DNA from: Alistipes senegalensis
GTDB lineage: Bacteria > Pseudomonadota > Gammaproteobacteria > Burkholderiales > Burkholderiaceae_D
Assembly (NCBI GenBank): GCA_023664945.1
Contig: JAMPER010000001.1
Coordinates: 62,001-126,000, forward strand
Reading direction: 5' to 3'
DNA length: 64,000 bases
Both the position numbers and the translations under genes were made by a program. Positions within the stretch are counted from its first letter, which is position 1. Every line of letters begins with the position of its first letter. This document shows positions 28,006 to 39,119 of the stretch, one piece after another. Below the pieces are notes generated by a model. That model was not told the origin of the DNA and ran no database searches. It saw nothing but the letters and a program-made list of their open reading frames with translations.

Positions 28006-30255
28006 ATGGAACCTGCAAATTCTGTCACCATTGCATTGGCAGGCAATCCTAACGCCGGTAAAACCACACTCTTTAACGCCATTACCGGAGCACGCCAGCA
28101 TGTGGGCAACTACCCCGGCATTACGGTTGAGAAAAAAACTGGTCTGGCCGAACTTGACGGAGAAACCCTCGCGCTTGTGGACCTGCCCGGCACCTACTCC
28201 CTGACAGCCTACAGCCCGGAAGAGCGGGTCGCCCGGCGTATGCTCACCGAAGAAAAACCGGATGTCGTCCTGCACGTAGTCGATGCAGGCGCACTGCAAC
28301 GCAACCTGTACCTGACCGTCCAGCTCCTGGAACTTGGCCTTCCCGTTGTCATTGCGCTCAACATGATGGATGAAGTACACAGCCGCGGCGACAGCATTGA
28401 TACCGAAAAACTTTCCCGGCTATTAAATGTCCCCGTCGTTGAAACCATCGGCCGTACCGGCAAAGGCATCACCGAAGCCTTGCGCACCGCCGCCGCTGTA
28501 GGCAAAGCCAACCGGGAAAAACCGCATACGCCCCGCCAATTCTCCTACGGGACAGATATTGACCCCGTCCTGGACACCATGGCAGCACAAATAGAAAAAG
28601 ACCTGGAGCAAACCGGCAAACAGGCTTCAGTTCCCTATCCCGCCCGGTGGCTAGCGCTGAAATTCCTGGAAAACGATACGGATATCCGGGAAAGCGGCCT
28701 GTTTTCCACGGAAACCCGGCCCGCCCTTGAATCCGAATACAACAAACTGGCAAAACATCTGGAAGACACCCTTCAAACCTACCCCGAAGCCACCATTGCC
28801 GACTTTCGCTACGGCTACATCTCCGGCGTTCTCCGCCAGGATATCGTCACCCGCCATAAAAGCGTCCACGCACGCCGGCACTTCTCCGACAAAATTGACA
28901 AATACCTTACCCATAACCTCATTGGCATCCTGTGCATGGGCCTGATCTTCTACCTGGTCTATGAAATTGCCTTCTCCCTTGGCTCCATCCCCATGGACTG
29001 GGTAGATGGCTTTTTCGGCTGGCTTGGCGAAACAGCCGATGCAACCCTTCCTGACGGGCTGTTCAAATCCCTCATCGTTGACGGCATCATCGGCGGCGTT
29101 GGCGGCATCATGACCTTTGTGCCGCTAATCTTCATCATGTTCTTCCTGATAGCCTTCCTGGAAGATTTGGGCTACATGGCGCGCATATCCTACATGCTTG
29201 ACCGCGTCTTCCGTTTCTTCGGTCTGCACGGCGCCTCCATCATGCCCTACATGATCAGCGGCGGCATTGCCGGCGGATGCGCCGTCCCCGGTGTCATGGC
29301 AACCCGCACCCTGCGAAGCCCCAAAGAAAAGATGGCCACCATGCTGACCTTGCCCTTCATGGCCTGCGGCGCCAAAATCCCCGTATTCCTGCTCCTGGTA
29401 AGCGCCTTCTTCCCCGAAGAAAACCAGGCTGCCATCATGCTCAGCATCACCGCTGCCGGATGGATACTGGCCCTGCTGTCTGCCCGGGCGCTGCGCTCAA
29501 CCATCATCGCCGGTCCGGCAACCCCGTTCGTCATGGAACTGCCCCCCTACCGCCTGCCAACCCTGCGCGGCCTTCTCATGCACACCTGGGAACGCGGCTG
29601 GCAATACCTGAAAAAAGCAGGCACCATCATCCTGGCCATCTCCATCGTCATGTGGGCCATCCTCACCTTCCCGCAGCTGCCCGGCGACATGGCCGAAAAC
29701 TATGCCGCCCAGGTCGCCGCTGCCGAAGAAAAAGCCGAAGCTGCCGAAACCGCGCTGGAAAAAGCGGCAGAGGCCGATAAAAACACACTGGCGGCCGAAC
29801 TCGAAGAAGCCAAAGAAGCCGTCGAAACACTGCAAAACGAAGAAAGCAGTGCCAAACTCCGCTATTCCATCGCCGGACGCATCGGCTCCGTATTCGAACC
29901 GGTCACCCAATTCGCCGGATTCGACTGGCGCACCAACATCGCCCTTTTGGGCGGCTTCGCAGCCAAGGAAGTCCTGGTCTCCACCCTGGGCACCGCCTAT
30001 TCTTTGGGTGAAGTCGATCCCGAAGAAGCCGATCCGTTAAGCGAAAAAATCCAGAGCGATCCGCACTGGAACAAAGCCAATGCCGCCAGCCTCATCATCT
30101 TTGTGCTGATCTACGCCCCGTGCGTCGTCACCATCGCCGCCATGAAATCCGAAACCGGCGGCTGGCGCTGGCCCCTGTTCAGCCTTTTCGGCAGCACCCT
30201 GTTTGCCTATCTCCTGGCGGTTGCCGTCTATCAGGCAGGCGCCCTGCTCATATAA
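28006..30255 (+). CDS. feoB: Ferrous iron transporter FeoB
   Basis: FeoB is the inner-membrane Fe(II) permease with a cytosolic G domain. From the ATG at 28006 (GGAG six bases upstream) it is 749 aa. G-motifs are GNPNAGKTT at 13-21, DLPG at 59-62 and NMMD at 119-122. The membrane part begins around residue 300 and holds two Gate-like repeats (GGIAGGCAVPGVMATRTL; GFAAKEVLVSTLGTAYSLG). An Ala/Glu/Lys-rich predicted coiled coil of about 55 residues (around 565-620) interrupts the membrane domain. It ends the feo operon. Confidence 0.96.
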   Translation: MEPANSVTIALAGNPNAGKTTLFNAITGARQHVGNYPGITVEKKTGLAELDGETLALVDLPGTYSLTAYSPEERVARRMLTEEKPDVVLHVVDAGALQRNLYLTVQLLELGLPVVIALNMMDEVHSRGDSIDTEKLSRLLNVPVVETIGRTGKGITEALRTAAAVGKANREKPHTPRQFSYGTDIDPVLDTMAAQIEKDLEQTGKQASVPYPARWLALKFLENDTDIRESGLFSTETRPALESEYNKLAKHLEDTLQTYPEATIADFRYGYISGVLRQDIVTRHKSVHARRHFSDKIDKYLTHNLIGILCMGLIFYLVYEIAFSLGSIPMDWVDGFFGWLGETADATLPDGLFKSLIVDGIIGGVGGIMTFVPLIFIMFFLIAFLEDLGYMARISYMLDRVFRFFGLHGASIMPYMISGGIAGGCAVPGVMATRTLRSPKEKMATMLTLPFMACGAKIPVFLLLVSAFFPEENQAAIMLSITAAGWILALLSARALRSTIIAGPATPFVMELPPYRLPTLRGLLMHTWERGWQYLKKAGTIILAISIVMWAILTFPQLPGDMAENYAAQVAAAEEKAEAAETALEKAAEADKNTLAAELEEAKEAVETLQNEESSAKLRYSIAGRIGSVFEPVTQFAGFDWRTNIALLGGFAAKEVLVSTLGTAYSLGEVDPEEADPLSEKIQSDPHWNKANAASLIIFVLIYAPCVVTIAAMKSETGGWRWPLFSLFGSTLFAYLLAVAVYQAGALLI

Positions 30256-30367
30256 ACCCCGCCGGCATCCGGCAAGCCGCATGGCAGCCGGCGCATTCCC
30301 CCGCGCTGGCTGCCACATTGCCGGTTCCTTCCTCCAAAACAAACCGCCACTTTTTTTCCTTTCATCC

Positions 30368-30397
30368 CTTGAAATCCATTATAAGCGCCCCTATACT
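30368..30397 (+). promoter_or_regulatory. Overlapping sigma-32 / sigma-70 promoter of groESL
   Basis: CTTGAAA (30368-30374), a 13-bp spacer and CCCCTATAC (from 30388) match the heat-shock sigma-32 pattern. The same stretch reads TTGAAA, 17 bp, TATACT (30392-30397) for sigma-70. Both would initiate inside or next to the CIRCE element. Confidence 0.7.
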
Positions 30398-30423
30398 TAG
30401 CACTCGTTAGGCGGGAGTGCTAA
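30397..30423 (+). promoter_or_regulatory. CIRCE element (HrcA operator)
   Basis: The inverted repeat TTAGCACTC-N9-GAGTGCTAA is a perfect match to the CIRCE consensus. HrcA binds it and represses chaperone genes until heat shock. hrcA itself is not in this window. The element lies 74 bp before groES, in the expected 5' UTR or start-site position. Confidence 0.95.
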
Positions 30424-30497
30424 TAACCCGCCGCAGAAACGGGCATTTCGGTTGCCCCTGCATCTATCAACCATCAGTACCAAAAGGAATTATTGTT

Positions 30498-30788
30498 ATG
30501 AAACTTCGTCCCTTACAAGACCGTCTCATTGTCAAACGCATGGATCTGGAAACCAAAACCGCATCCGGCATCGTCATTCCTGAAACAGCCGCAGAAAAAC
30601 CGGATCAAGGCGAAGTCCTCGCTGTTGGCAACGGCAAAATCACGCCGGAAGGCAAAGTGCTGCCCATGGATGTCAAAGTTGGCGACCGCGTCCTCTTTGG
30701 CAAATATTCCGGCCAGACCGTCAAAGTAGATGGTGAAGAGCTGCTCGTCATGCACGAGAGCGACATCATGGCCATCCTGGACAAATAA
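30498..30788 (+). CDS. groES: Co-chaperonin GroES
   Basis: The 96-aa product starts [20 protein letters not shown] and includes the mobile loop region [20 protein letters not shown]. GroES caps the GroEL chamber. The frame extends 27 codons upstream through the CIRCE region, so the ATG at 30498 is taken. AAAGGAAT precedes it. groEL follows after 60 bp in the same transcript. Confidence 0.97.
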
Positions 30789-30827
30789 ATCCGGGAAAGC
30801 CGTCAGGACAATAAAACCGAAATTTAA

Positions 30828-32495
<1,668 letters not shown>

Positions 32496-32527
32496 TTTCC
32501 GCCAGGGTTCATCCCCCTTTGCTCTTC

Positions 32528-32562
32528 AACCCCCGCAATGCCAGGCATTGCGGGGGTTTTTC
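32528..32562 (+). terminator. Rho-independent terminator after groEL
   Basis: CCCCCGCAATGCC and GGCATTGCGGGGG form a perfect 13-bp stem with a very short loop, followed by TTTTT. AA precedes the stem. This ends the groESL transcript and isolates the next gene cluster. Confidence 0.92.
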
Positions 32563-32852
32563 AACCAAACAAGCGGCAAGGGCCTTCCTGCCCGTTTGGC
32601 AGGTAAATCAGGTAAAATACAGGAAATATTACCATTCGATACGGTATTGTCGTTGCCTGATATGCAAAAACACTTCTCTCTCCCCCCCCCGCTGATTTTT
32701 CATTAAAAAACCAACACTTAACGCGCTTCTGCGTGTCAGGGTTATATAACGCCGCCCCGTGCCTGCCTGTGTGCTGCACGGGGTTTGTGTTTTCCGGCGG
32801 CACAACAGAGTCGTTGTTGCTCCGGCACAGATAAACCGAAAAGGCATCCGGG
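32563..32852. other. 290-bp intergenic region with a C9 tract upstream of the accessory cassette
   Basis: No credible gene is seen here. The notable feature is CTTCTCTCT followed by nine consecutive C residues at 32682-32690, about 160 bp before the first cassette gene. Several AT-rich stretches and a TATATAAC at about 32743 could serve in a promoter, but I find no convincing -35/-10 pair. The tract could vary in length by slipped-strand pairing. Confidence 0.5.
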
Positions 32853-33116
32853 ATGTTTTTCTGCACAAAGTGCGGCGAATGCTGCCGGCATGTAAGGGAA
32901 ACCGGCCTGCTCGCTGAACTGGACAGGGGAGACGGATGCTGCCGGTATTTAACCGGCAATTTGTGCGCAATCTATGAAACGCGCCCGCTGCTATGCCGGG
33001 TGGATGAGGCTTATGAAACACTGTTCAAGGCGGTGATGTCTCGGGATGAATATGACCGCCTGAACGCCGAACAATGCCGGAAACTGATAAGTAATCAATC
33101 ATGTCAACAGAAATAG
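32853..33116 (+). CDS. CxxCxxCC (YkgJ-type) metal-binding protein
   Basis: This 87-aa cytoplasmic protein begins MFFCTKCGECCRHV, with C4, C7, C10 and C11. A second set of cysteines follows in GCCRYLTGNLCAIYETRPLLC. This spacing is that of the YkgJ/CxxCxxCC family, thought to chelate zinc or an iron-sulfur centre. The biochemical role is not established. It is the first gene of the four-gene cassette and overlaps the next gene by 16 bp, so the two are probably cotranslated. Its ribosome site is weak (AAGG eight bases upstream). Confidence 0.85.
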   Translation: MFFCTKCGECCRHVRETGLLAELDRGDGCCRYLTGNLCAIYETRPLLCRVDEAYETLFKAVMSRDEYDRLNAEQCRKLISNQSCQQK

Positions 33117-34687
33117 ACCGGAAAGAAAAAGAAGACAGCCAGAAAGGCAAACAGCTGAAACAGGCCGCCTTAAATGGCGCGGCAGCGGAAACCGTGCAGC
33201 GTTACGGTTCTGCCGTCAAGGAATACAACGTCGCCTATTCCGGCGTGGATAATGAAGCCGGAAAAAAGCTGACCAGGGGCCTGAAAGACATTGCGAAATC
33301 CAAAGTGCATCCGGATTACCGGGATGCCAATCTCAAACAGCAGGCCGGCTTTTCCGCAGAAGTGCTGGATACAGCGGATACCAACGCAGAATATATTATC
33401 CGCAAAAGCCCTGTCAGAAAAATACGGACGGATGACCTAAAGAAAATGGTTGACCCGCATTCCGGCAAACCGGTTGGCGGAACAAACGACACCTTGTTTG
33501 ACCATGTTGAGCTGGATAAGCATGGCAATATCATTCCCAGTTCTGCCGCGCAGATGAAATTTGTCGGCAAGACCCCTGAAGACGCTTACAACAAGCTCAT
33601 GTCCCCAGAGTATCAAAAATATTTTGATACCAATGCAAAAATAGAAGTACCGTCTGATCAATACAACGAATTGAACCGGATAAATGAAAACAGGCTGGCC
33701 AGCCTCGAAAAGCAATACCAGCGGGCAAAGGCATCCGGCAAAGATGAAACAGCCGCTGGCATCCAAAAGAAAATCGAAAAATGCCGGCAGTTGAAACGCA
33801 ACCTGAAAAAAAGCACGGTATCCAACCAGGATGCCGTAGATGCCAGAACGAATCCGCTCCGGACTACCGCCGGCAGAATGGCAAAAGTGGCACACCGCGC
33901 CGGGGTGGAGCAGGCAAAGCTGGGCGCAGCCATCAGCGGATCTCTCTCCCTGATTCAGAATACAGTGGCTGTCCTAAAGGGCGAAAAAAAGGCCGATGAG
34001 GCGGCATGGGATGTCTGCCAGGAAACAGGGAAAGCAGCCGTAGCCAGCTATGCCACCGCTTTTAGCTGCAGCATCTTAAAAGGCACCATGCAGAATGCAG
34101 GCTCATCGTGGCTTCGGAATCTGTCAAAAACCAACCTGCCTGCCGTGATGCTGACAACCACGCTTGACATGGGCAAGGCATTCAAAGGCTATCTCTCCGG
34201 CGAAATAGATGGCCTGCAATGTCTGGAAGCACTGGGGCAAAGCGGGGTAAATCAGCTCTCTTCGGCAATGTTTGCCACCATCGGGCAAATAGTAATCCCG
34301 ATTCCTGTTGTAGGCGCAATCATCGGCGCCATGGCAGGCTGCGCGCTTTCTTCCGCCTGCTACAGCGAAGTAGTCACGGCACTCAAAGAAGCCCGGCTGG
34401 CACGTGAAGAGCGGTTGAGGATAGAAGCGGAATGCGAAAGGCTTATAGAAATGACAAGGGCCTACCGCCTTCAGGCCGAAGCAATGGTGGAACGCTATTT
34501 ATGCGATCACCTGCAAACCTTTCACCAGGGATTTCAGGAAATATCCCGGGCCATGCAAACGGGCGATACAGACAGCTTCATGGCGGCCAATGCCGCCATG
34601 CAGGAAAAACTGGGGCATCAGGCGTCATTTTCTTCTTTCCCGGAATTTGATGCCTTAATGCAAAGCAACACCCCTTTGAAACTGTAA
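33101..34687 (+). CDS. 528-aa hypothetical protein with central hydrophobic domain
   Basis: The protein has three visible parts. Residues 1-200 are polar and soluble, with KQQAGFSAEVLDTADTNAEY, a run of Asp residues and AAQMKFVGKTPEDAYNKL. About 190-260 is a Lys/Glu-rich, coiled-coil-like stretch. Residues 270-440 hold Gly/Ala-rich hydrophobic segments, the clearest being QIVIPIPVVGAIIGAMAGCA near 400. A charged helical C-terminus follows (EARLAREERLRIEAECERL). The soluble part reminds me of N-terminal domains in recurrent bacterial hypothetical proteins of toxin-like character, but I cannot name a family. No signal peptide is seen. It is coupled to the metal-binding gene upstream. Confidence 0.8.
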   Translation: MSTEIDRKEKEDSQKGKQLKQAALNGAAAETVQRYGSAVKEYNVAYSGVDNEAGKKLTRGLKDIAKSKVHPDYRDANLKQQAGFSAEVLDTADTNAEYIIRKSPVRKIRTDDLKKMVDPHSGKPVGGTNDTLFDHVELDKHGNIIPSSAAQMKFVGKTPEDAYNKLMSPEYQKYFDTNAKIEVPSDQYNELNRINENRLASLEKQYQRAKASGKDETAAGIQKKIEKCRQLKRNLKKSTVSNQDAVDARTNPLRTTAGRMAKVAHRAGVEQAKLGAAISGSLSLIQNTVAVLKGEKKADEAAWDVCQETGKAAVASYATAFSCSILKGTMQNAGSSWLRNLSKTNLPAVMLTTTLDMGKAFKGYLSGEIDGLQCLEALGQSGVNQLSSAMFATIGQIVIPIPVVGAIIGAMAGCALSSACYSEVVTALKEARLAREERLRIEAECERLIEMTRAYRLQAEAMVERYLCDHLQTFHQGFQEISRAMQTGDTDSFMAANAAMQEKLGHQASFSSFPEFDALMQSNTPLKL

Positions 34688-34705
34688 ACAGGAAGGAGAA
34701 GATAA

Positions 34706-35224
34706 ATGGAAATAGAAAACATTGATGTAACAAAAGATATGCTGAAATGCGCCTATTTCATGATGTCGGCCGATGGAAAAATTACGCTGCCGGAATTGCA
34801 AAAATTCGAACTTTTCTGCGAGGAGTATCCCGGATCTGACTGGGCACAGAACAGCATTATCAGCGAATGTGACGAGGAGATTGCCCGCCACGGAGTTTAT
34901 GTGGCGACAAAAAAATTGCTGCTTGCCTGCTTGGATGATGAACAAAAGCGTTATCTGCTCTGGATTCTTGTAAATATTGCCTATGCCGACGGGGAATACG
35001 CTGCGGCGGAAAGGGAACTGCTTCGCTATGCCGCAAAAGAGATGGAAATGGATGAATCCCTTGTCCTGGAAATGGAAGATTCTGCGGAAACACTTCTGGC
35101 GCTGAAGGAAAAAGAAAAATGGATGGCCGGAAGAAAAACCGGTCAGGCCAACCTTGAAAAAAACATTAAGAAAGACTGGGATGACGTAACAAACAGCATC
35201 CATGCGCTGGTCTTAATCGGATAA
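34706..35224 (+). CDS. TerB-like protein
   Basis: This 172-aa protein looks like a single TerB domain. It has KCAYFMMSADGKITLPELQKF near residue 20 and the partner motif WILVNIAYADGEYAAAEREL near residue 95, both acidic helical motifs of the tellurite-resistance TerB / DjlA-N superfamily. TerB-type domains bind metal and occur in stress or conflict gene clusters. GGAAGGAG lies seven bases before the ATG. The last 40 residues are Lys-rich. It lies 18 bp after the 528-aa gene. The family call is by motif only. Confidence 0.75.
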   Translation: MEIENIDVTKDMLKCAYFMMSADGKITLPELQKFELFCEEYPGSDWAQNSIISECDEEIARHGVYVATKKLLLACLDDEQKRYLLWILVNIAYADGEYAAAERELLRYAAKEMEMDESLVLEMEDSAETLLALKEKEKWMAGRKTGQANLEKNIKKDWDDVTNSIHALVLIG

Positions 35225-35262
35225 CCCGAACAAAAATAACAAAACCCCTTCAGGAGAAAAAT

Positions 35263-36279
35263 ATGCCCTTACCCTTACTTTTTATCGGCGCTGCCGCCGC
35301 TACCGGACTTTTCGGCGCAGGAAAAGCCATCAAGGCCGCTTCAGATAACAGCAAGGCAAATGATATCCATAAAGAGGCGGAAAAACTGGTTGAAACATCA
35401 AAGAAAACCCTGGAAACAGCCAAAGCAGCCAGCGGGAAATCCCTGGAAACGCTGGGCGAAAAAAAGATTGACGTGCTGGATACGGGATTAAGGCGCTTTG
35501 TGGATGCGTTTGAGCAGCTCCATAACGTGGATTTCCAGAATTCGGTCGGGCTGGATGAATTGGGAAAATTCAGGATAGACAGGCAGGCGCTCAAAGAATT
35601 TCGGGAAATGGCCGACTTCGCCGCCTCTGTCGCAGGCGGCGTCACGGGCGGTGCGATAGCCGGGGCCATGACAGCCTTTGGCGCTTATGGCGCCGCAACA
35701 ACCTTTGCGGCAGCGTCAACTGGCACGGCCATTTCTGCCTTGAGCGGGGCAGCGGCAACGAATGCCACGCTGGCATTCTTTGGCGGCGGTTCACTGGCGG
35801 CAGGCGGTCTTGGCGTAGCAGGCGGCACGGCAGTTTTGGGCGGCCTGGTAGCAGGCCCTGCGCTGGCCGTGATGGGGCTGGTAATGGGCGCAAAAGCCAG
35901 CGCCAATCTTGACAGGGCGCGTTCAAACTGGGTAGAAGCCAGAAAGATCCACGAAGAATTGAAAACCGCCGCCATGATGTGCAATGCCATTCGGCGCAGG
36001 GCATACATGTTCCAGCGCCTGCTGATTCGCTGCGACGCGGTTTTTACCCCACTGGTTTTTGCGCTTGAAGAAACCATCAAAACCAGCGGGACAAACTATC
36101 AGCATTTTTCTGATGAGCAAAAACACACAGTCGGCATGGCGGCCAGCATGGCAGGCACAATAAAAAGTATTCTGGATACGCCGATTCTCACGAAGGAAGG
36201 CAAGCTGACAGACGAATCGGAAGCCAAGGCAAAAGAAATCGGCAGCCTGAAAATACTGGAACAGCGCACAACGGCCTGA
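35263..36279 (+). CDS. 338-aa hypothetical protein with long Gly/Ala-rich membrane-like segment
   Basis: The N-terminus is hydrophobic and short (MPLPLLFIGAAAATGLFGAG). A helical, Lys/Glu/Ala-rich segment follows (about 25-125). A very Gly/Ala/Thr-rich stretch at about 125-215 holds repeated GGxxxG-like spacing (AGGVTGGAIAGAM, GGGSLAAGGLGVAGGTAVLGG). The last 120 residues are soluble and contain the MMCNAIRRRAYMFQRLL helix. Such glycine-zipper regions can pack into membranes or oligomerise. I recognise it as a recurrent hypothetical type but know no assigned function. AGGAG lies six bases before the ATG, and it is 38 bp after the TerB gene. Confidence 0.8.
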   Translation: MPLPLLFIGAAAATGLFGAGKAIKAASDNSKANDIHKEAEKLVETSKKTLETAKAASGKSLETLGEKKIDVLDTGLRRFVDAFEQLHNVDFQNSVGLDELGKFRIDRQALKEFREMADFAASVAGGVTGGAIAGAMTAFGAYGAATTFAAASTGTAISALSGAAATNATLAFFGGGSLAAGGLGVAGGTAVLGGLVAGPALAVMGLVMGAKASANLDRARSNWVEARKIHEELKTAAMMCNAIRRRAYMFQRLLIRCDAVFTPLVFALEETIKTSGTNYQHFSDEQKHTVGMAASMAGTIKSILDTPILTKEGKLTDESEAKAKEIGSLKILEQRTTA

Positions 36280-36485
36280 TATATTGGCTTGCCGGTTATT
36301 CAGCCGCGGCGCAGGGAGACAGGGCAAAACCCCGCTGGAAAACCTTGCGCCGCCCCGGCAACCCGCCATCCGGCTTTCTCCCCTTGGGCACTTTCAGCGT
36401 GATACCGGAATACTGCCTTACCCGCGCCATAGCGTTTTTTCCTCCCCGGCAACAACGCCGGTTCCACCATCTGGGCTTCATCCCC

Positions 36486-36491
36486 TATAAT
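36486..36491 (+). promoter_or_regulatory. Consensus -10 box upstream of the ClC gene
   Basis: A perfect TATAAT lies 32 bp before the ClC start codon. No good -35 hexamer is present at 16-18 bp, so an activator or a weak promoter is implied. The rest of the 244-bp gap after the cassette (36280-36523) shows no gene. Confidence 0.45.
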
Positions 36492-36523
36492 GGGATAACC
36501 ATCAACGAAGCCTTGTTTCTACC

Positions 36524-37900
36524 ATGTCTTCATCCCAACCGGAAAAACCGGAGGAAACCCTTTCCACGGCAGGGGCAAACCTGTCGGCCAACCGCCTGGT
36601 TGATAAAACCCGTGACGCCTGGCACCACATCCTCATCTGGCTCCTGGCGTCCACCTTGATCGGCCTGGTCGGCGTCGGCGTTGCCATTGCCAGCAACATG
36701 GCCAACGAAGCCAACCTCTGGCTACAGGAAAAACTGCATTACTGGCTTTTGCTGCTCATTCCAGCCGCCTTTGCCCTGTTCTCATACCTCACCGGCCGCT
36801 TTTTTTCCGGAACGCAGGGCAGTGGCATTCCCCAGACCATCGCTGTCATTGACGATCCGGACAGCCGGAAAAAAAGCAACCTCCTTTCCATCCGCAACCT
36901 GTGCGGCAAAATTGCCATGCTCCTGGGCGGCCTGGTCATGGGCGCTTCCATCGGTCGCGAAGGCCCCACCGTCCAGATTGGCGCCTCACTCAGCCACGCC
37001 TTCTACGGCCACGATCCTTTCAAAACAGCGGAACATCGCCGCACCCTGGTGCTGGCAGGCGGCGCGGCAGGCATTGCCGCCGCATTCAATACCCCGCTGG
37101 CCGGCATCATGTTCGCCATAGAAGAACTCAACAAAAAATATCCCTTCAACGCCCACAGTTCCACCCTGCTCACCGTCATCATCGCCGGGCTCATCTCGCT
37201 GGCCATCCAGGGAAACTACACCTACTTCGGCATCACCCACGTCACGCTGGATCTGTCCCAGCACCTTTATGCCATTGCCGCCTGCAGCCTGTTGGGCGGG
37301 GCGGCAGGCGGCCTTTTCAGCCTGCTTACCCAGAAATTCACCTTCCTGCTTCCCGAACGCTGCCGCCGCTTCATCCAGGCCCATCCCTACCTCTTTGCCG
37401 CCCTGTGCGGGCTCCTCGTCGCCATACTGGGTTTCATCACACACGGCATGACATTCGGCACCAGCTACCAGCCCACCCGCATGACACTGGAGGCAGAAAA
37501 CAGCCTCTTCGTCTGGTATTACGGCATCTGCAAATTCCTGGCAACCCTCCTGTCCACACTAAGCGGCATTCCGGGCGGCCTTTTTGCGCCCACCCTTTCC
37601 GTCGGTGCCGGGCTGGGAGACAGCCTCTCCGCCCTGCTGCCGGGCATCGCCCCCCACGGCGCCATCATCATCCTCGTCATGGTTGCCTACCTCTCGGGCG
37701 TCACCCGCTCCCCGCTCACCTCCTTCATCATCACCATGGAAATGACAGGCAGCAACCACATGCTGCTTTCCCTCATGATAACGGCCCTTTTCGCCAGCGG
37801 CGTCTCCCGCTTCATCAGCCCGGTGCCGCTCTATCACGCGCTGGCCGAGCGATACGCCTACCGTGCCCCTGCTGCCGCGCCAACCATAAAAAACGGATAA
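36524..37900 (+). CDS. clcA: ClC-type H+/Cl- exchange transporter
   Basis: The 458-aa membrane protein carries the ClC selectivity motifs in order: GSGIPQ near residue 105, GREGPTVQIGAS near 145 with the gating glutamate, and GGLFAPTLSVGAGLG near 350. A proton-path glutamate pair is present in FAIEEL near 205, so an antiporter rather than a channel is likely. About eleven hydrophobic segments are visible. ClC antiporters support acid resistance by electrical balancing of proton-consuming decarboxylation. The next gene starts four bases after its stop. Confidence 0.93.
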   Translation: MSSSQPEKPEETLSTAGANLSANRLVDKTRDAWHHILIWLLASTLIGLVGVGVAIASNMANEANLWLQEKLHYWLLLLIPAAFALFSYLTGRFFSGTQGSGIPQTIAVIDDPDSRKKSNLLSIRNLCGKIAMLLGGLVMGASIGREGPTVQIGASLSHAFYGHDPFKTAEHRRTLVLAGGAAGIAAAFNTPLAGIMFAIEELNKKYPFNAHSSTLLTVIIAGLISLAIQGNYTYFGITHVTLDLSQHLYAIAACSLLGGAAGGLFSLLTQKFTFLLPERCRRFIQAHPYLFAALCGLLVAILGFITHGMTFGTSYQPTRMTLEAENSLFVWYYGICKFLATLLSTLSGIPGGLFAPTLSVGAGLGDSLSALLPGIAPHGAIIILVMVAYLSGVTRSPLTSFIITMEMTGSNHMLLSLMITALFASGVSRFISPVPLYHALAERYAYRAPAAAPTIKNG

Positions 37901-37904
37901 CGTC

Positions 37905-39119
37905 ATGTCCAGACCCATCGACTTTCCTCCCGCCTTCCTGGAAGAAATCAAAGCCATCCGGCGCGATATCCACGCCCATCCCGAAACCGCCTATGAAGAA
38001 ACACGGACAGCAGACCTGATTGCAGGCAAACTGCAAGAAAGCGGCATTGCCGTCATTCGCGGCATCGGCGGCACCGGCGTCATCGGCAAAATCAAAAACG
38101 GAAAAAGCCGGCGCGCCATCGGCCTGCGCGCCGATATGGACGCCCTGCCAATCAACGAAACCAACCGGTTTGCCCATGCCTCCCGCCACCCCGGGAAAAT
38201 GCACGCCTGCGGCCACGACGGCCATACCGCCATGCTGCTGGGCGCAGCCATTCACCTGGCCAACACCCGCCGGTTTGACGGCACAGTCTATACCATCTTC
38301 CAGCCCGCCGAAGAAGGCCATGGCGGCGCAAAACGCATGATACAGGAAGGCCTGTTCAACACCTGCCCCGTTGACGCCATCTTCGGCCTGCACAACTGGC
38401 CGGACTATGCGGCAGGCACCTTTGCCGTCAGAACCGGCCCGCTGATGGCCTCAAGCAACACCTTTACCCTCACCATCCACGGCAAAGGCGGACACGGCGC
38501 ACAGCCCAACCAGACCATTGACCCGATCATGACCGCCGTACAAATCGCCCAAAGCTGGCAAACCATCATCAGCCGCAACAAGGCCCCGGCAGAAGCGGCA
38601 ACATTGTCCGTCACCCGTATCGAAGCCGGCAACACCTTTAACGTCATACCCAATCAGGCTGTCATGGCCGGCACCGTCCGCACCTTCACCCCTGAAGTCC
38701 TCGACCTGGTAGAACAACGCATGCGCGAAATTGCCGGACACACCGCAGCCGCTTTCCATTGCCGTGCCGAATTTGTTTTCCACCGGAACTACCCGCCACT
38801 TGCCAATCATCCGGCTGAAACGGCCTTTGCCATTGATGTCATGGAATCCATCGCCGGCCCTTCCCGTGTCGTCAGGGATGCCGGGCCTACCATGATCGCC
38901 GAAGACTTCTCCTTCATGCTGGCGCAAAAACCGGGGTGCTACGCCTTCATCGGCGCCAGCGCCGGCGAATACCGGGAAGCAGGGCACAGCGATGCCCCCT
39001 GCCGGCTTCACAGTCCCGGCTTTGACTTCAACGATGCCATTTTGCCCACCGGCATGAGCTACTGGATCCGGCTGGCAGAAACCTGCCTTGCCCCGCCAGC
39101 CGGCAGCCAGCCTGCCTGA
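37905..39119 (+). CDS. M20-family amidohydrolase (aminoacylase / hippurate hydrolase type)
   Basis: This 404-aa cytoplasmic metal-dependent hydrolase has RRDIHAHPETAYEE, LRADMDALPI, HACGHDGHTAMLLGAA and QPAEEGHGGAKRMI, the metal-binding motifs of the M20D amidohydrolases. These remove N-acyl groups from amino acids or related amides. The substrate cannot be read from sequence. It is four bases downstream of clcA, so the two are cotranscribed, though the functional link is unclear. Confidence 0.9.
   Translation: MSRPIDFPPAFLEEIKAIRRDIHAHPETAYEETRTADLIAGKLQESGIAVIRGIGGTGVIGKIKNGKSRRAIGLRADMDALPINETNRFAHASRHPGKMHACGHDGHTAMLLGAAIHLANTRRFDGTVYTIFQPAEEGHGGAKRMIQEGLFNTCPVDAIFGLHNWPDYAAGTFAVRTGPLMASSNTFTLTIHGKGGHGAQPNQTIDPIMTAVQIAQSWQTIISRNKAPAEAATLSVTRIEAGNTFNVIPNQAVMAGTVRTFTPEVLDLVEQRMREIAGHTAAAFHCRAEFVFHRNYPPLANHPAETAFAIDVMESIAGPSRVVRDAGPTMIAEDFSFMLAQKPGCYAFIGASAGEYREAGHSDAPCRLHSPGFDFNDAILPTGMSYWIRLAETCLAPPAGSQPA

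What the first reader, a model, noticed from the sequence alone, without database searches (positions are those of the whole stretch)
32853..36279. Four-gene cassette (metal-binding CxxCxxCC protein, 528-aa membrane-domain protein, TerB-like protein, Gly/Ala-zipper protein) as a candidate undescribed system
Seen: four genes in one direction, with a 16-bp overlap and then gaps of 18 and 38 bp. They are isolated by the groEL terminator on one side and a 244-bp gap before clcA on the other. Two proteins have large hydrophobic or glycine-zipper segments and two look like small metal- or signal-handling proteins. Codon use is less C-ending than in the flanking feoB, groEL and clcA, which suggests separate ancestry. 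Known: TerB-type domains occur in stress and conflict clusters. Inference: a membrane-acting stress, envelope-defence or phage-response module in which the TerB and CxxCxxCC proteins sense and the two membrane proteins act.
Basis: partly seen in the sequence, partly recalled or inferred. Interest (0 to 1): 0.75.

Follow-up and report, generated by a model that had tools for sequence, protein, structure and literature searches.

The report
Horizontally acquired nuclease-membrane defence candidate operon
Four genes that sit together between two housekeeping genes belong to a small operon shared by distant bacteria, most likely a defence against viruses or plasmids that pairs a predicted DNA-cutting enzyme with membrane-associated and metal-binding proteins.

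Summary
The cassette is probably a gained insertion: a close relative has groEL and clcA adjacent without it. It is a real unit: of 66 loci found by the 528-aa gene alone, 62 carry the 338-aa gene, 40 a TerB-type gene, 36 the CxxCxxCC gene and 22 a WYL regulator. One genome fuses the CxxCxxCC domain to the 528-aa protein. Not wholly undescribed: genes 2 and 4 match PADLOC's two-gene phage-defence candidate PDC-M09. Added here: the TerB and cysteine parts, an invariant E...D...QxK signature in the 528-aa protein (65 of 65), and a parallel form with an HNH-type protein in its place on plasmids and, without the cysteine gene, in two Aeromonas jumbo phages examined. I read it as a modular anti-phage or anti-plasmid system with a nuclease effector and a glycine-zipper partner. 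Nuclease fold, membrane location and defence are inferred: structure prediction was off, profile matches to a nuclease failed, and enrichment beside defence genes was unclear. A 2025 TerB system, Dionysus, could not be read.

The parts
32564..36433 (.). Approximate extent of the segment (about 3.87 kb) absent from the same place in relative G007
   Evidence: blastn of window 30001-38200 against L146: homology ends at window 32563 and resumes at 36434; no clear target-site duplication seen, so the ends are approximate
32530..32561 (+). groEL intrinsic terminator at the left boundary (13-bp arms, T run); not part of the cassette
   Evidence: read directly; a similar hairpin stands in L146
32853..33116 (+). 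gene 1, CxxCxxCC (YkgJ-type) cysteine-cluster protein, 87 aa, eight conserved cysteines
   Evidence: PF03692; C4, C7, C10, C11, C30, C38, C48 in 39 of 39 aligned rows, C75 in 38 of 39
33101..34687 (+). gene 2, 528 aa, PDC-M09B homologue, predicted nuclease-membrane effector
   Evidence: PADLOC PDC-M09B 7.9e-16 over residues 151-435
33233..33700 (+). gene 2 N-terminal domain (residues 45-200) with invariant E87, D134, Q151, K153 (E...D...QxK)
   Evidence: 65 of 65 aligned sequences, window included; helix-strand-strand-strand-helix-strand propensity by a simple scale
33899..34375 (+). gene 2 hydrophobic, glycine-rich C-terminal part (residues about 267-425; hydropathy peaks near 283 and 391-412)
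   Evidence: hydropathy averaged over 65 sequences; limits by eye
34706..35224 (+). gene 3, TerB-family protein, 172 aa
   Evidence: PF05099 2e-10
35263..36279 (+). gene 4, 338 aa, PDC-M09A homologue, glycine-zipper protein
   Evidence: PADLOC PDC-M09A 2.5e-27; 56 of 59 aligned family members, window included, match PDC-M09A
35611..35907 (+). gene 4 glycine/alanine-rich hydrophobic segment (residues about 117-215), where most of its conserved residues lie
   Evidence: limits by eye

Best explanation
A horizontally acquired four-gene operon, an expanded relative of the PADLOC candidate PDC-M09, that most likely protects the cell from phages or plasmids. The 528-aa protein is a nuclease-like effector (PD-(D/E)XK-type signature) with a hydrophobic C-terminal half; the 338-aa glycine-zipper protein is its membrane or assembly partner; the TerB and eight-cysteine (zinc or iron-sulphur binding) proteins sense or restrain the effector; in many other copies a WYL protein probably controls expression. 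On infection the partner would release or position the nuclease to cut incoming DNA or the cell's own. Shown: the genes, their recurrence together, the empty site, the conserved motif, PDC-M09 homology, and a form with an HNH-type protein in the effector slot. Inferred: direction of the gain or loss, nuclease activity, membrane location, metal binding, division of labour, defence.
For: PDC-M09A/B matches. Partner co-occurrence in loci found by gene 2 alone: of 66, 62 gene 4, 40 TerB-type, 36 gene 1, 22 WYL; of the 46 with enough flank, 45, 28, 31 and 19, and 18 of 46 have genes 1-4. Distances of genes 2, 4 and 1 correlate (2-4 r 0.83, 59 loci; 2-1 r 0.70, 36; 4-1 r 0.75, 35; 0 of 2000 permutations each). 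Gene 1 domain fused to the gene 2 N-terminus in L096, the order of the window. Empty site in a close relative and no cassette match between groEL and clcA in seven other same-genus genomes; 12 of 12 other same-genus genomes lack matches to gene 2 and to the gene 4 family. Tree of 65: the window groups with 8 Bacillota, 2 Actinomycetota and 2 Pseudomonadota rows (98/92). E87, D134, Q151, K153 in 65 of 65; G83, A86, E87, Q151, K153 also in 3 of 3 distant PDC-M09B proteins. Effector swap: gene 4 - HNH protein - gene 1 in L179, L192, L193, L194, L197 (5 of 9 bacterial loci examined) and gene 4 - HNH in phages L198, L199 (2 of 2); D110, H111, N140, N149 in 9 of 9 bacterial HNH proteins. WYL in 23 of 23 members of the recurrent cluster.
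Against: No activity has been tested. No profile match of the N-domain to a nuclease: Mrr_cat by hhalign gave 1.3% probability, and PDB sequence searches found no nuclease. D134 is opposite a gap in the three PDC-M09B proteins (a D lies nearby with other spacing). The defence-neighbourhood control was not clean: PADLOC families at E 1e-10 numbered 171 (122 neighbours) and 72 (119 neighbours) against 56 (116 control genes), and control genes too matched mad3, mad6, MzaA and SduA. 18 of the 46 well-flanked loci lack a recognised TerB and 15 lack gene 1, so these are optional. The window copy has no WYL gene beside it and stands between groEL and clcA. The C-terminal halves of the HNH protein and gene 2 match each other no better than reversed controls.
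Confidence: 0.58

Rival explanations
1. Pure membrane-damage (abortive) system: genes 2 and 4 form a glycine-zipper pore when TerB or gene 1 sense infection; the N-domain of gene 2 is a sensor, not a nuclease.
For: Gene 4 is strongly glycine-zipper-like (22 against 12.5 motifs; 5 of 500 shuffles) and gene 2 has hydrophobic segments; weak, sub-cut-off SLATT/DUF4231 hints for gene 4; 6 of 59 gene 4 relatives match LeoBC (best 1.3e-7).
Against: All nine invariant columns of gene 2 lie in residues 48-174, none in the hydrophobic part; the parallel form has an HNH signature in that slot.
Confidence: 0.2
2. Metal or tellurite/oxidative stress module unrelated to phages: TerB and the cysteine protein sense metal or redox state and the membrane proteins respond.
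For: TerB and CxxCxxCC families; eight conserved cysteines.
Against: No TerC or TerD match among the four genes; TerB and gene 1 are the optional parts while gene 4 accompanies gene 2 in 62 of 66 loci; genes 2 and 4 match a phage-defence candidate; the HNH form lies on plasmids and jumbo phages.
Confidence: 0.1
3. Interbacterial or phage-borne weapon: a nuclease toxin with its delivery and immunity partners, not a defence system.
For: Nuclease-plus-hydrophobic architecture; gene 4 - HNH pair in Aeromonas jumbo phages.
Against: No secretion-type family appeared among the four genes; signal peptides and immunity genes were not searched for. The frequent WYL association (22 of 66) suits regulated intracellular conflict.
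Confidence: 0.12

Closest known systems
PADLOC candidate PDC-M09 (PDCs: guilt-by-embedding candidates of Payne et al. 2024, a preprint seen only as a citation in passages of PMC12988326; the preprint itself is not held)
   Same: Homologues of both its proteins: gene 4 = M09A, gene 2 = M09B
   Different: TerB lies between them, and there are extra TerB and CxxCxxCC genes; the three loci with strong M09B matches (L012-L014) show M09A directly beside M09B, a 310-331-aa neighbour, and no TerB or gene 1 match nearby
Shango and Bunzi (TerB-containing anti-phage systems; passages of PMC10250203 and PMC10952713)
   Same: A TerB-family protein in a defence operon
   Different: Shango has ATPase and helicase genes; neither is in this cassette. 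Bunzi's partner protein was not compared directly
Dionysus (TerB homologue; van den Berg et al. 2025 preprint, seen only as mentions in passages of PMC12926258)
   Same: TerB homologue in a reported anti-phage system
   Different: Could not be compared; it may overlap with this operon
LeoBC (PADLOC model; association with the dynamin-like LeoA is recalled)
   Same: 6 of 59 gene 4 relatives match LeoBC (best 1.3e-7)
   Different: No dynamin-type match among the four genes
HNH-form operon on Klebsiella and other plasmids (WYL - glycine-zipper protein - 'cob(I)alamin adenosyltransferase' - YkgJ in L192)
   Same: Same gene 4, gene 1 and WYL families
   Different: HNH signature instead of E...D...QxK; no TerB match in the loci scanned.

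Membership tests
PDC-M09 (PADLOC) | homologue of M09A | tested here: met
   gene 4, 2.5e-27
PDC-M09 (PADLOC) | homologue of M09B | tested here: met
   gene 2, 7.9e-16, profile positions 116-409 of 486
PDC-M09 (PADLOC) | two adjacent genes | tested here: inconclusive
   same operon, but TerB lies between them; PADLOC's own system rule was not run
PDC-M09 (PADLOC) | anti-phage activity | not testable with these tools
   0 papers in the held library contain 'PDC-M09'
PD-(D/E)XK nuclease superfamily | conserved E/D...[E/Q]xK active site (motif recalled) | tested here: met
   E87, D134, Q151, K153 in 65 of 65
PD-(D/E)XK nuclease superfamily | profile similarity to a member family | tested here: not met
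   Mrr_cat hhalign 1.3%, the only member family compared this way; Pfam on 65 members gave no nuclease among the 25 families shown; no nuclease among PDB matches
PD-(D/E)XK nuclease superfamily | restriction-endonuclease core fold | tested here: inconclusive
   secondary-structure propensities fit; structure prediction switched off
TerB family (PF05099) | profile match over cut-off | tested here: met
   41.5 bits against 24.4
CxxCxxCC / YkgJ family (PF03692) | profile match and cysteine motif | tested here: met
   23.6 bits against 23, motif CxxCGxCC; metal binding not testable
Ter (tellurite) operon | TerC and TerD partners | tested here: not met
   no such match among the four genes
Shango | TerB with ATPase and helicase genes | tested here: not met
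   no ATPase or helicase match among the four genes
Bunzi | its component proteins | tested here: inconclusive
   gene 3 has no PADLOC match at E 1 and genes 2 and 4 only PDC-M09; whether the library holds Bunzi models was not checked
Dionysus | its TerB protein and partners | not testable with these tools
   preprint not held

The most novel reading that the evidence does not exclude
A modular conflict system in which a glycine-zipper membrane protein and an eight-cysteine protein serve interchangeable nuclease effectors (E...D...QxK type or HNH type), with optional TerB and WYL parts, spread over chromosomes of many phyla, plasmids and jumbo phages. It would be a membrane-linked nuclease defence of a kind not yet described, with the two-gene PDC-M09 as one minimal form.
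Probability: 0.48. Interest if true: 0.8.

Novelty: new variant of a known kind. Interest (0 to 1): 0.6.

Why it matters
It turns a two-gene database candidate, for which I found no test in the held library, into a defined multi-part operon with a likely catalytic site, an optional regulatory layer and a natural effector swap, so its mechanism can be tested directly. Cupriavidus metallidurans CH34 carries the HNH form. It also gives a context for the TerB and CxxCxxCC families, and suggests that a protein named cob(I)alamin adenosyltransferase on many Klebsiella plasmids is probably misnamed.

Tried and rejected
Mrr_cat as the nuclease family: no profile match. PDB sequence searches with profiles of gene 2, its N-domain and gene 4, and with the HNH protein, gave only helical or apparently chance matches; TerB found TerB structures (2ou3 0.0011, 2jxu 0.017). 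Pfam and PHROGs on the 65 gene 2 rows: weak, scattered matches among the 25 families shown. Phages: no gene 2 match with the window or the Enterobacter copy. E. coli: no match with the Enterobacter operon as DNA. Plasmids: 2 records for gene 2, 0 for gene 4, although one of those records (Azospirillum) holds a 41% relative, so the filter probably hid it. Viral contigs: none with the window protein, one with the alignment (L170, which has gene 2 and a TerB-type match).

Rows dropped: the G095 match (it lies in an rpoC-like ORF). Weak matches (G116, G124, G133, G161, G239, all at E 7e-5 or worse) were not counted as relatives; G151 carries genes 3, 1, 4 and a 130-aa piece like the gene 2 C-terminus. 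Left out of alignments: L059 (Megasphaera, as L058 and L061) and L069 (384 aa) from gene 2; L059 and L090 from gene 4; eight of 38 listed TerB rows, with two divergent ones added; 54 of 65 N-domains used in A6. Of 439 neighbour genes of 150 aa or more, 241 went to PADLOC (L058, L059 and L079-L102 were not sent). Control: 116 genes from 14 of the 16 fetched regions. PADLOC was not run on the HNH protein, nor on other genes of the window (cap reached).

C-terminal similarity of the HNH protein and gene 2: no better than reversed controls. Promoter scan: no more than shuffles. Literature: searches found no paper describing genes 1-4 as one system; listings and passages only, no paper read whole, and no preprints are held. 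Passages of PMC13092281 have no TerB or WYL; passages of PMC4012209 note WYL-TerB fusions.
Full report
Observation. The four ORFs, their strand, the 16-bp overlap, the 18- and 38-bp gaps and the 244-bp gap before clcA are exactly as described. Gene 1 is a CxxCxxCC protein and gene 3 a TerB protein; genes 2 and 4 have no significant Pfam family.

Origin. Third-position C is 0.24-0.31 in the cassette and 0.50-0.56 in five neighbours. In same-genus genome G007 (ClcA 98%, GroEL 99% identical) groEL and clcA are adjacent, and homology to the window breaks near 32563 and 36434, so about 3.87 kb was gained here or lost there. In the seven other same-genus genomes examined, groEL and clcA also stand near each other (about 0.2 to 0.75 kb between match ends) with no match to genes 1-4 in the stretch. 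Gene 2 is absent from 12 of 12 other same-genus genomes and the gene 4 family from the same 12; 6 of these 12 are at least 90% complete. This favours gain. In a tree of 65 gene 2 proteins the smallest well-supported set with the window holds 8 Bacillota, 2 Actinomycetota and 2 Pseudomonadota rows (98/92), while the eight rows with betaproteobacterial names lie in the other half; the mixed company suits transfer between phyla, but a tree alone does not prove it.

It is a unit. A scan of the held genomes of 84,980 species with a three-sequence gene 2 alignment found 66 loci, titled as nine phyla among the 64 placed in the tree (two rows without a group, and one, a 'Cyanobacteria' MAG, perhaps mis-binned). 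Gene 4 is nearby in 62 of 66, a TerB-type gene in 40, gene 1 in 36 and a WYL gene in 22; among the 46 with at least 1.5 kb before and 3 kb after, 45, 28, 31 and 19, and 18 of 46 have genes 1 to 4. TerB and WYL assignments rest on iterated profiles and clustering in my scripts and are lower bounds. The usual order is (WYL) - 2 - 3 - 4 - 1; the window has 1 - 2 - 3 - 4 and no WYL beside it. Distances of genes 2, 4 and 1 are correlated (0 of 2000 permutations reach the observed values), though shared host ancestry contributes. In a Fusobacteriaceae MAG the gene 1 domain is fused to the start of gene 2 (L096).

Known relatives. Genes 2 and 4 match PADLOC PDC-M09B and M09A, and 56 of 59 gene 4 rows match M09A. 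PDC systems are candidates from a guilt-by-embedding screen (passages of PMC12988326); no held paper contains the name PDC-M09. Three loci with strong M09B matches have M09A beside M09B without TerB or gene 1 matches nearby. WYL proteins of the BrxR family co-localise with many defence systems (passages of PMC9122601); all 23 members of the recurrent cluster scanned carry WYL. TerB occurs in Shango and Bunzi (passages) and Dionysus (mentions).

What gene 2 may be. In 65 sequences only nine columns are invariant, all within residues 48-174: G48, N77, G83, A86, E87, D134, Q151, K153, Y174. E...D...QxK with helix-strand-strand-strand-helix-strand propensities fits a PD-(D/E)XK nuclease (motif and fold order recalled). 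G83, A86, E87, Q151 and K153 are kept in three distant PDC-M09B proteins; G48, N77 and Y174 are not kept in all and D134 faces a gap. Profile comparison with Mrr_cat and PDB sequence searches found nothing, so the fold is unproven.

An independent hint. Genome G354 has gene 4, then a 523-aa protein that does not match the gene 2 profile at E 1e-3, then gene 1. That protein has an HNH-type signature (motif recalled): D110, H111, N140 and N149 are invariant in 9 of 9 bacterial relatives aligned, and the two phage copies keep them. Relatives occur in 69 plasmid records, 39 of them Klebsiella; of the 20 best rows, 18 are named cobalamin adenosyltransferase and 19 run into a YkgJ gene. Of nine bacterial loci examined, gene 4 and gene 1 flank it in five (L179, L192, L193, L194, L197). 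L195 had neither; L185 and L186 had neither but only short flanks; L196 gave weak, unsteady matches beside an annotated glycine-zipper protein and lies near a Sau3AI-type restriction gene. Aeromonas phages LAh10 and D3 (about 260 kb) carry gene 4 beside the HNH protein, without gene 1, TerB or WYL matches. The same partners serving two different nuclease signatures is the best evidence here that gene 2 is a nuclease effector. More remotely, in a Ruminococcus albus plasmid a gene 2 relative follows a HerA/DUF87-type ATPase gene, and in an Oscillospiraceae MAG it follows an ORF of similar start and size.

Neighbourhood. PADLOC families shown among 241 neighbours include type I methyltransferases, mad2, mad3, mad6, BrxA, BrxB, MzaC, type IV restriction and HEC-05 (25 families shown per call). 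Of 116 control genes from 14 regions of the window's phylum, 56 families matched, mad3, mad6, MzaA and SduA among them, against 171 (122 genes) and 72 (119 genes). Families are not genes, so this is suggestive at most.

Mechanism, most likely. Gene 4 anchors or oligomerises at the membrane; gene 2 is held there and cuts DNA on infection; TerB and gene 1 tune or sense; WYL controls expression where present. Only conservation and linkage are shown; the rest is inference. Limits: the scan requires conserved gene 2 peptides, so 66 is a lower bound. In 398 genomes sampled from the window's phylum, 8 matched the gene 2 profile: the window's own at full length, three PDC-M09-type partial matches, and four weak ones; 17 matched the gene 4 profile.

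Noticed in passing
L198:3979-6575 and L199:3979-6575 (Aeromonas phages LAh10 and D3): Gene 4 homologue (2.2e-50 in L198) followed by the HNH protein; in LAh10 annotated as chemotaxis protein and cobalamin adenosyltransferase: a phage-borne form of the pair.
   Followed up: partly
L192:7393-10841 (Klebsiella michiganensis plasmid): WYL gene (141 aa, next to an IS3 element), gene 4, HNH protein named ATP--cob(I)alamin adenosyltransferase, YkgJ gene.
   Followed up: partly
L083, L087, L088, L091, L092: Gene 1 is 233 aa, with about 145 extra C-terminal residues; no further Pfam match in the two scanned (L083, L088). Four of these five loci lack a recognised TerB.
   Followed up: partly
L004:8762-13311 and L098:817-5405: A gene 2 relative follows a HerA/DUF87-type ATPase gene (Pfam match in L004) or a similar ORF (L098) instead of standing beside gene 4.
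   Followed up: partly
L190:436-2496: Order TerB - gene 1 - gene 4 - 130-aa piece like the gene 2 C-terminus, without the nuclease-like domain; reduced or decayed form.
   Followed up: partly
L047, L054, L095: Closely related cassettes in two Treponema MAGs and a 'Cyanobacteria' MAG; recent transfer or a mis-binned contig.
   Followed up: no
L071:7923-9542: Azospirillum gene 2 with a WYL gene upstream but no gene 4 recognised beside it; possibly decaying.
   Followed up: no
L193:4745-7889: Laboratory strain Cupriavidus metallidurans CH34 carries gene 4 - HNH - gene 1 on its megaplasmid; no features are listed there in the PLSDB table.
   Followed up: partly
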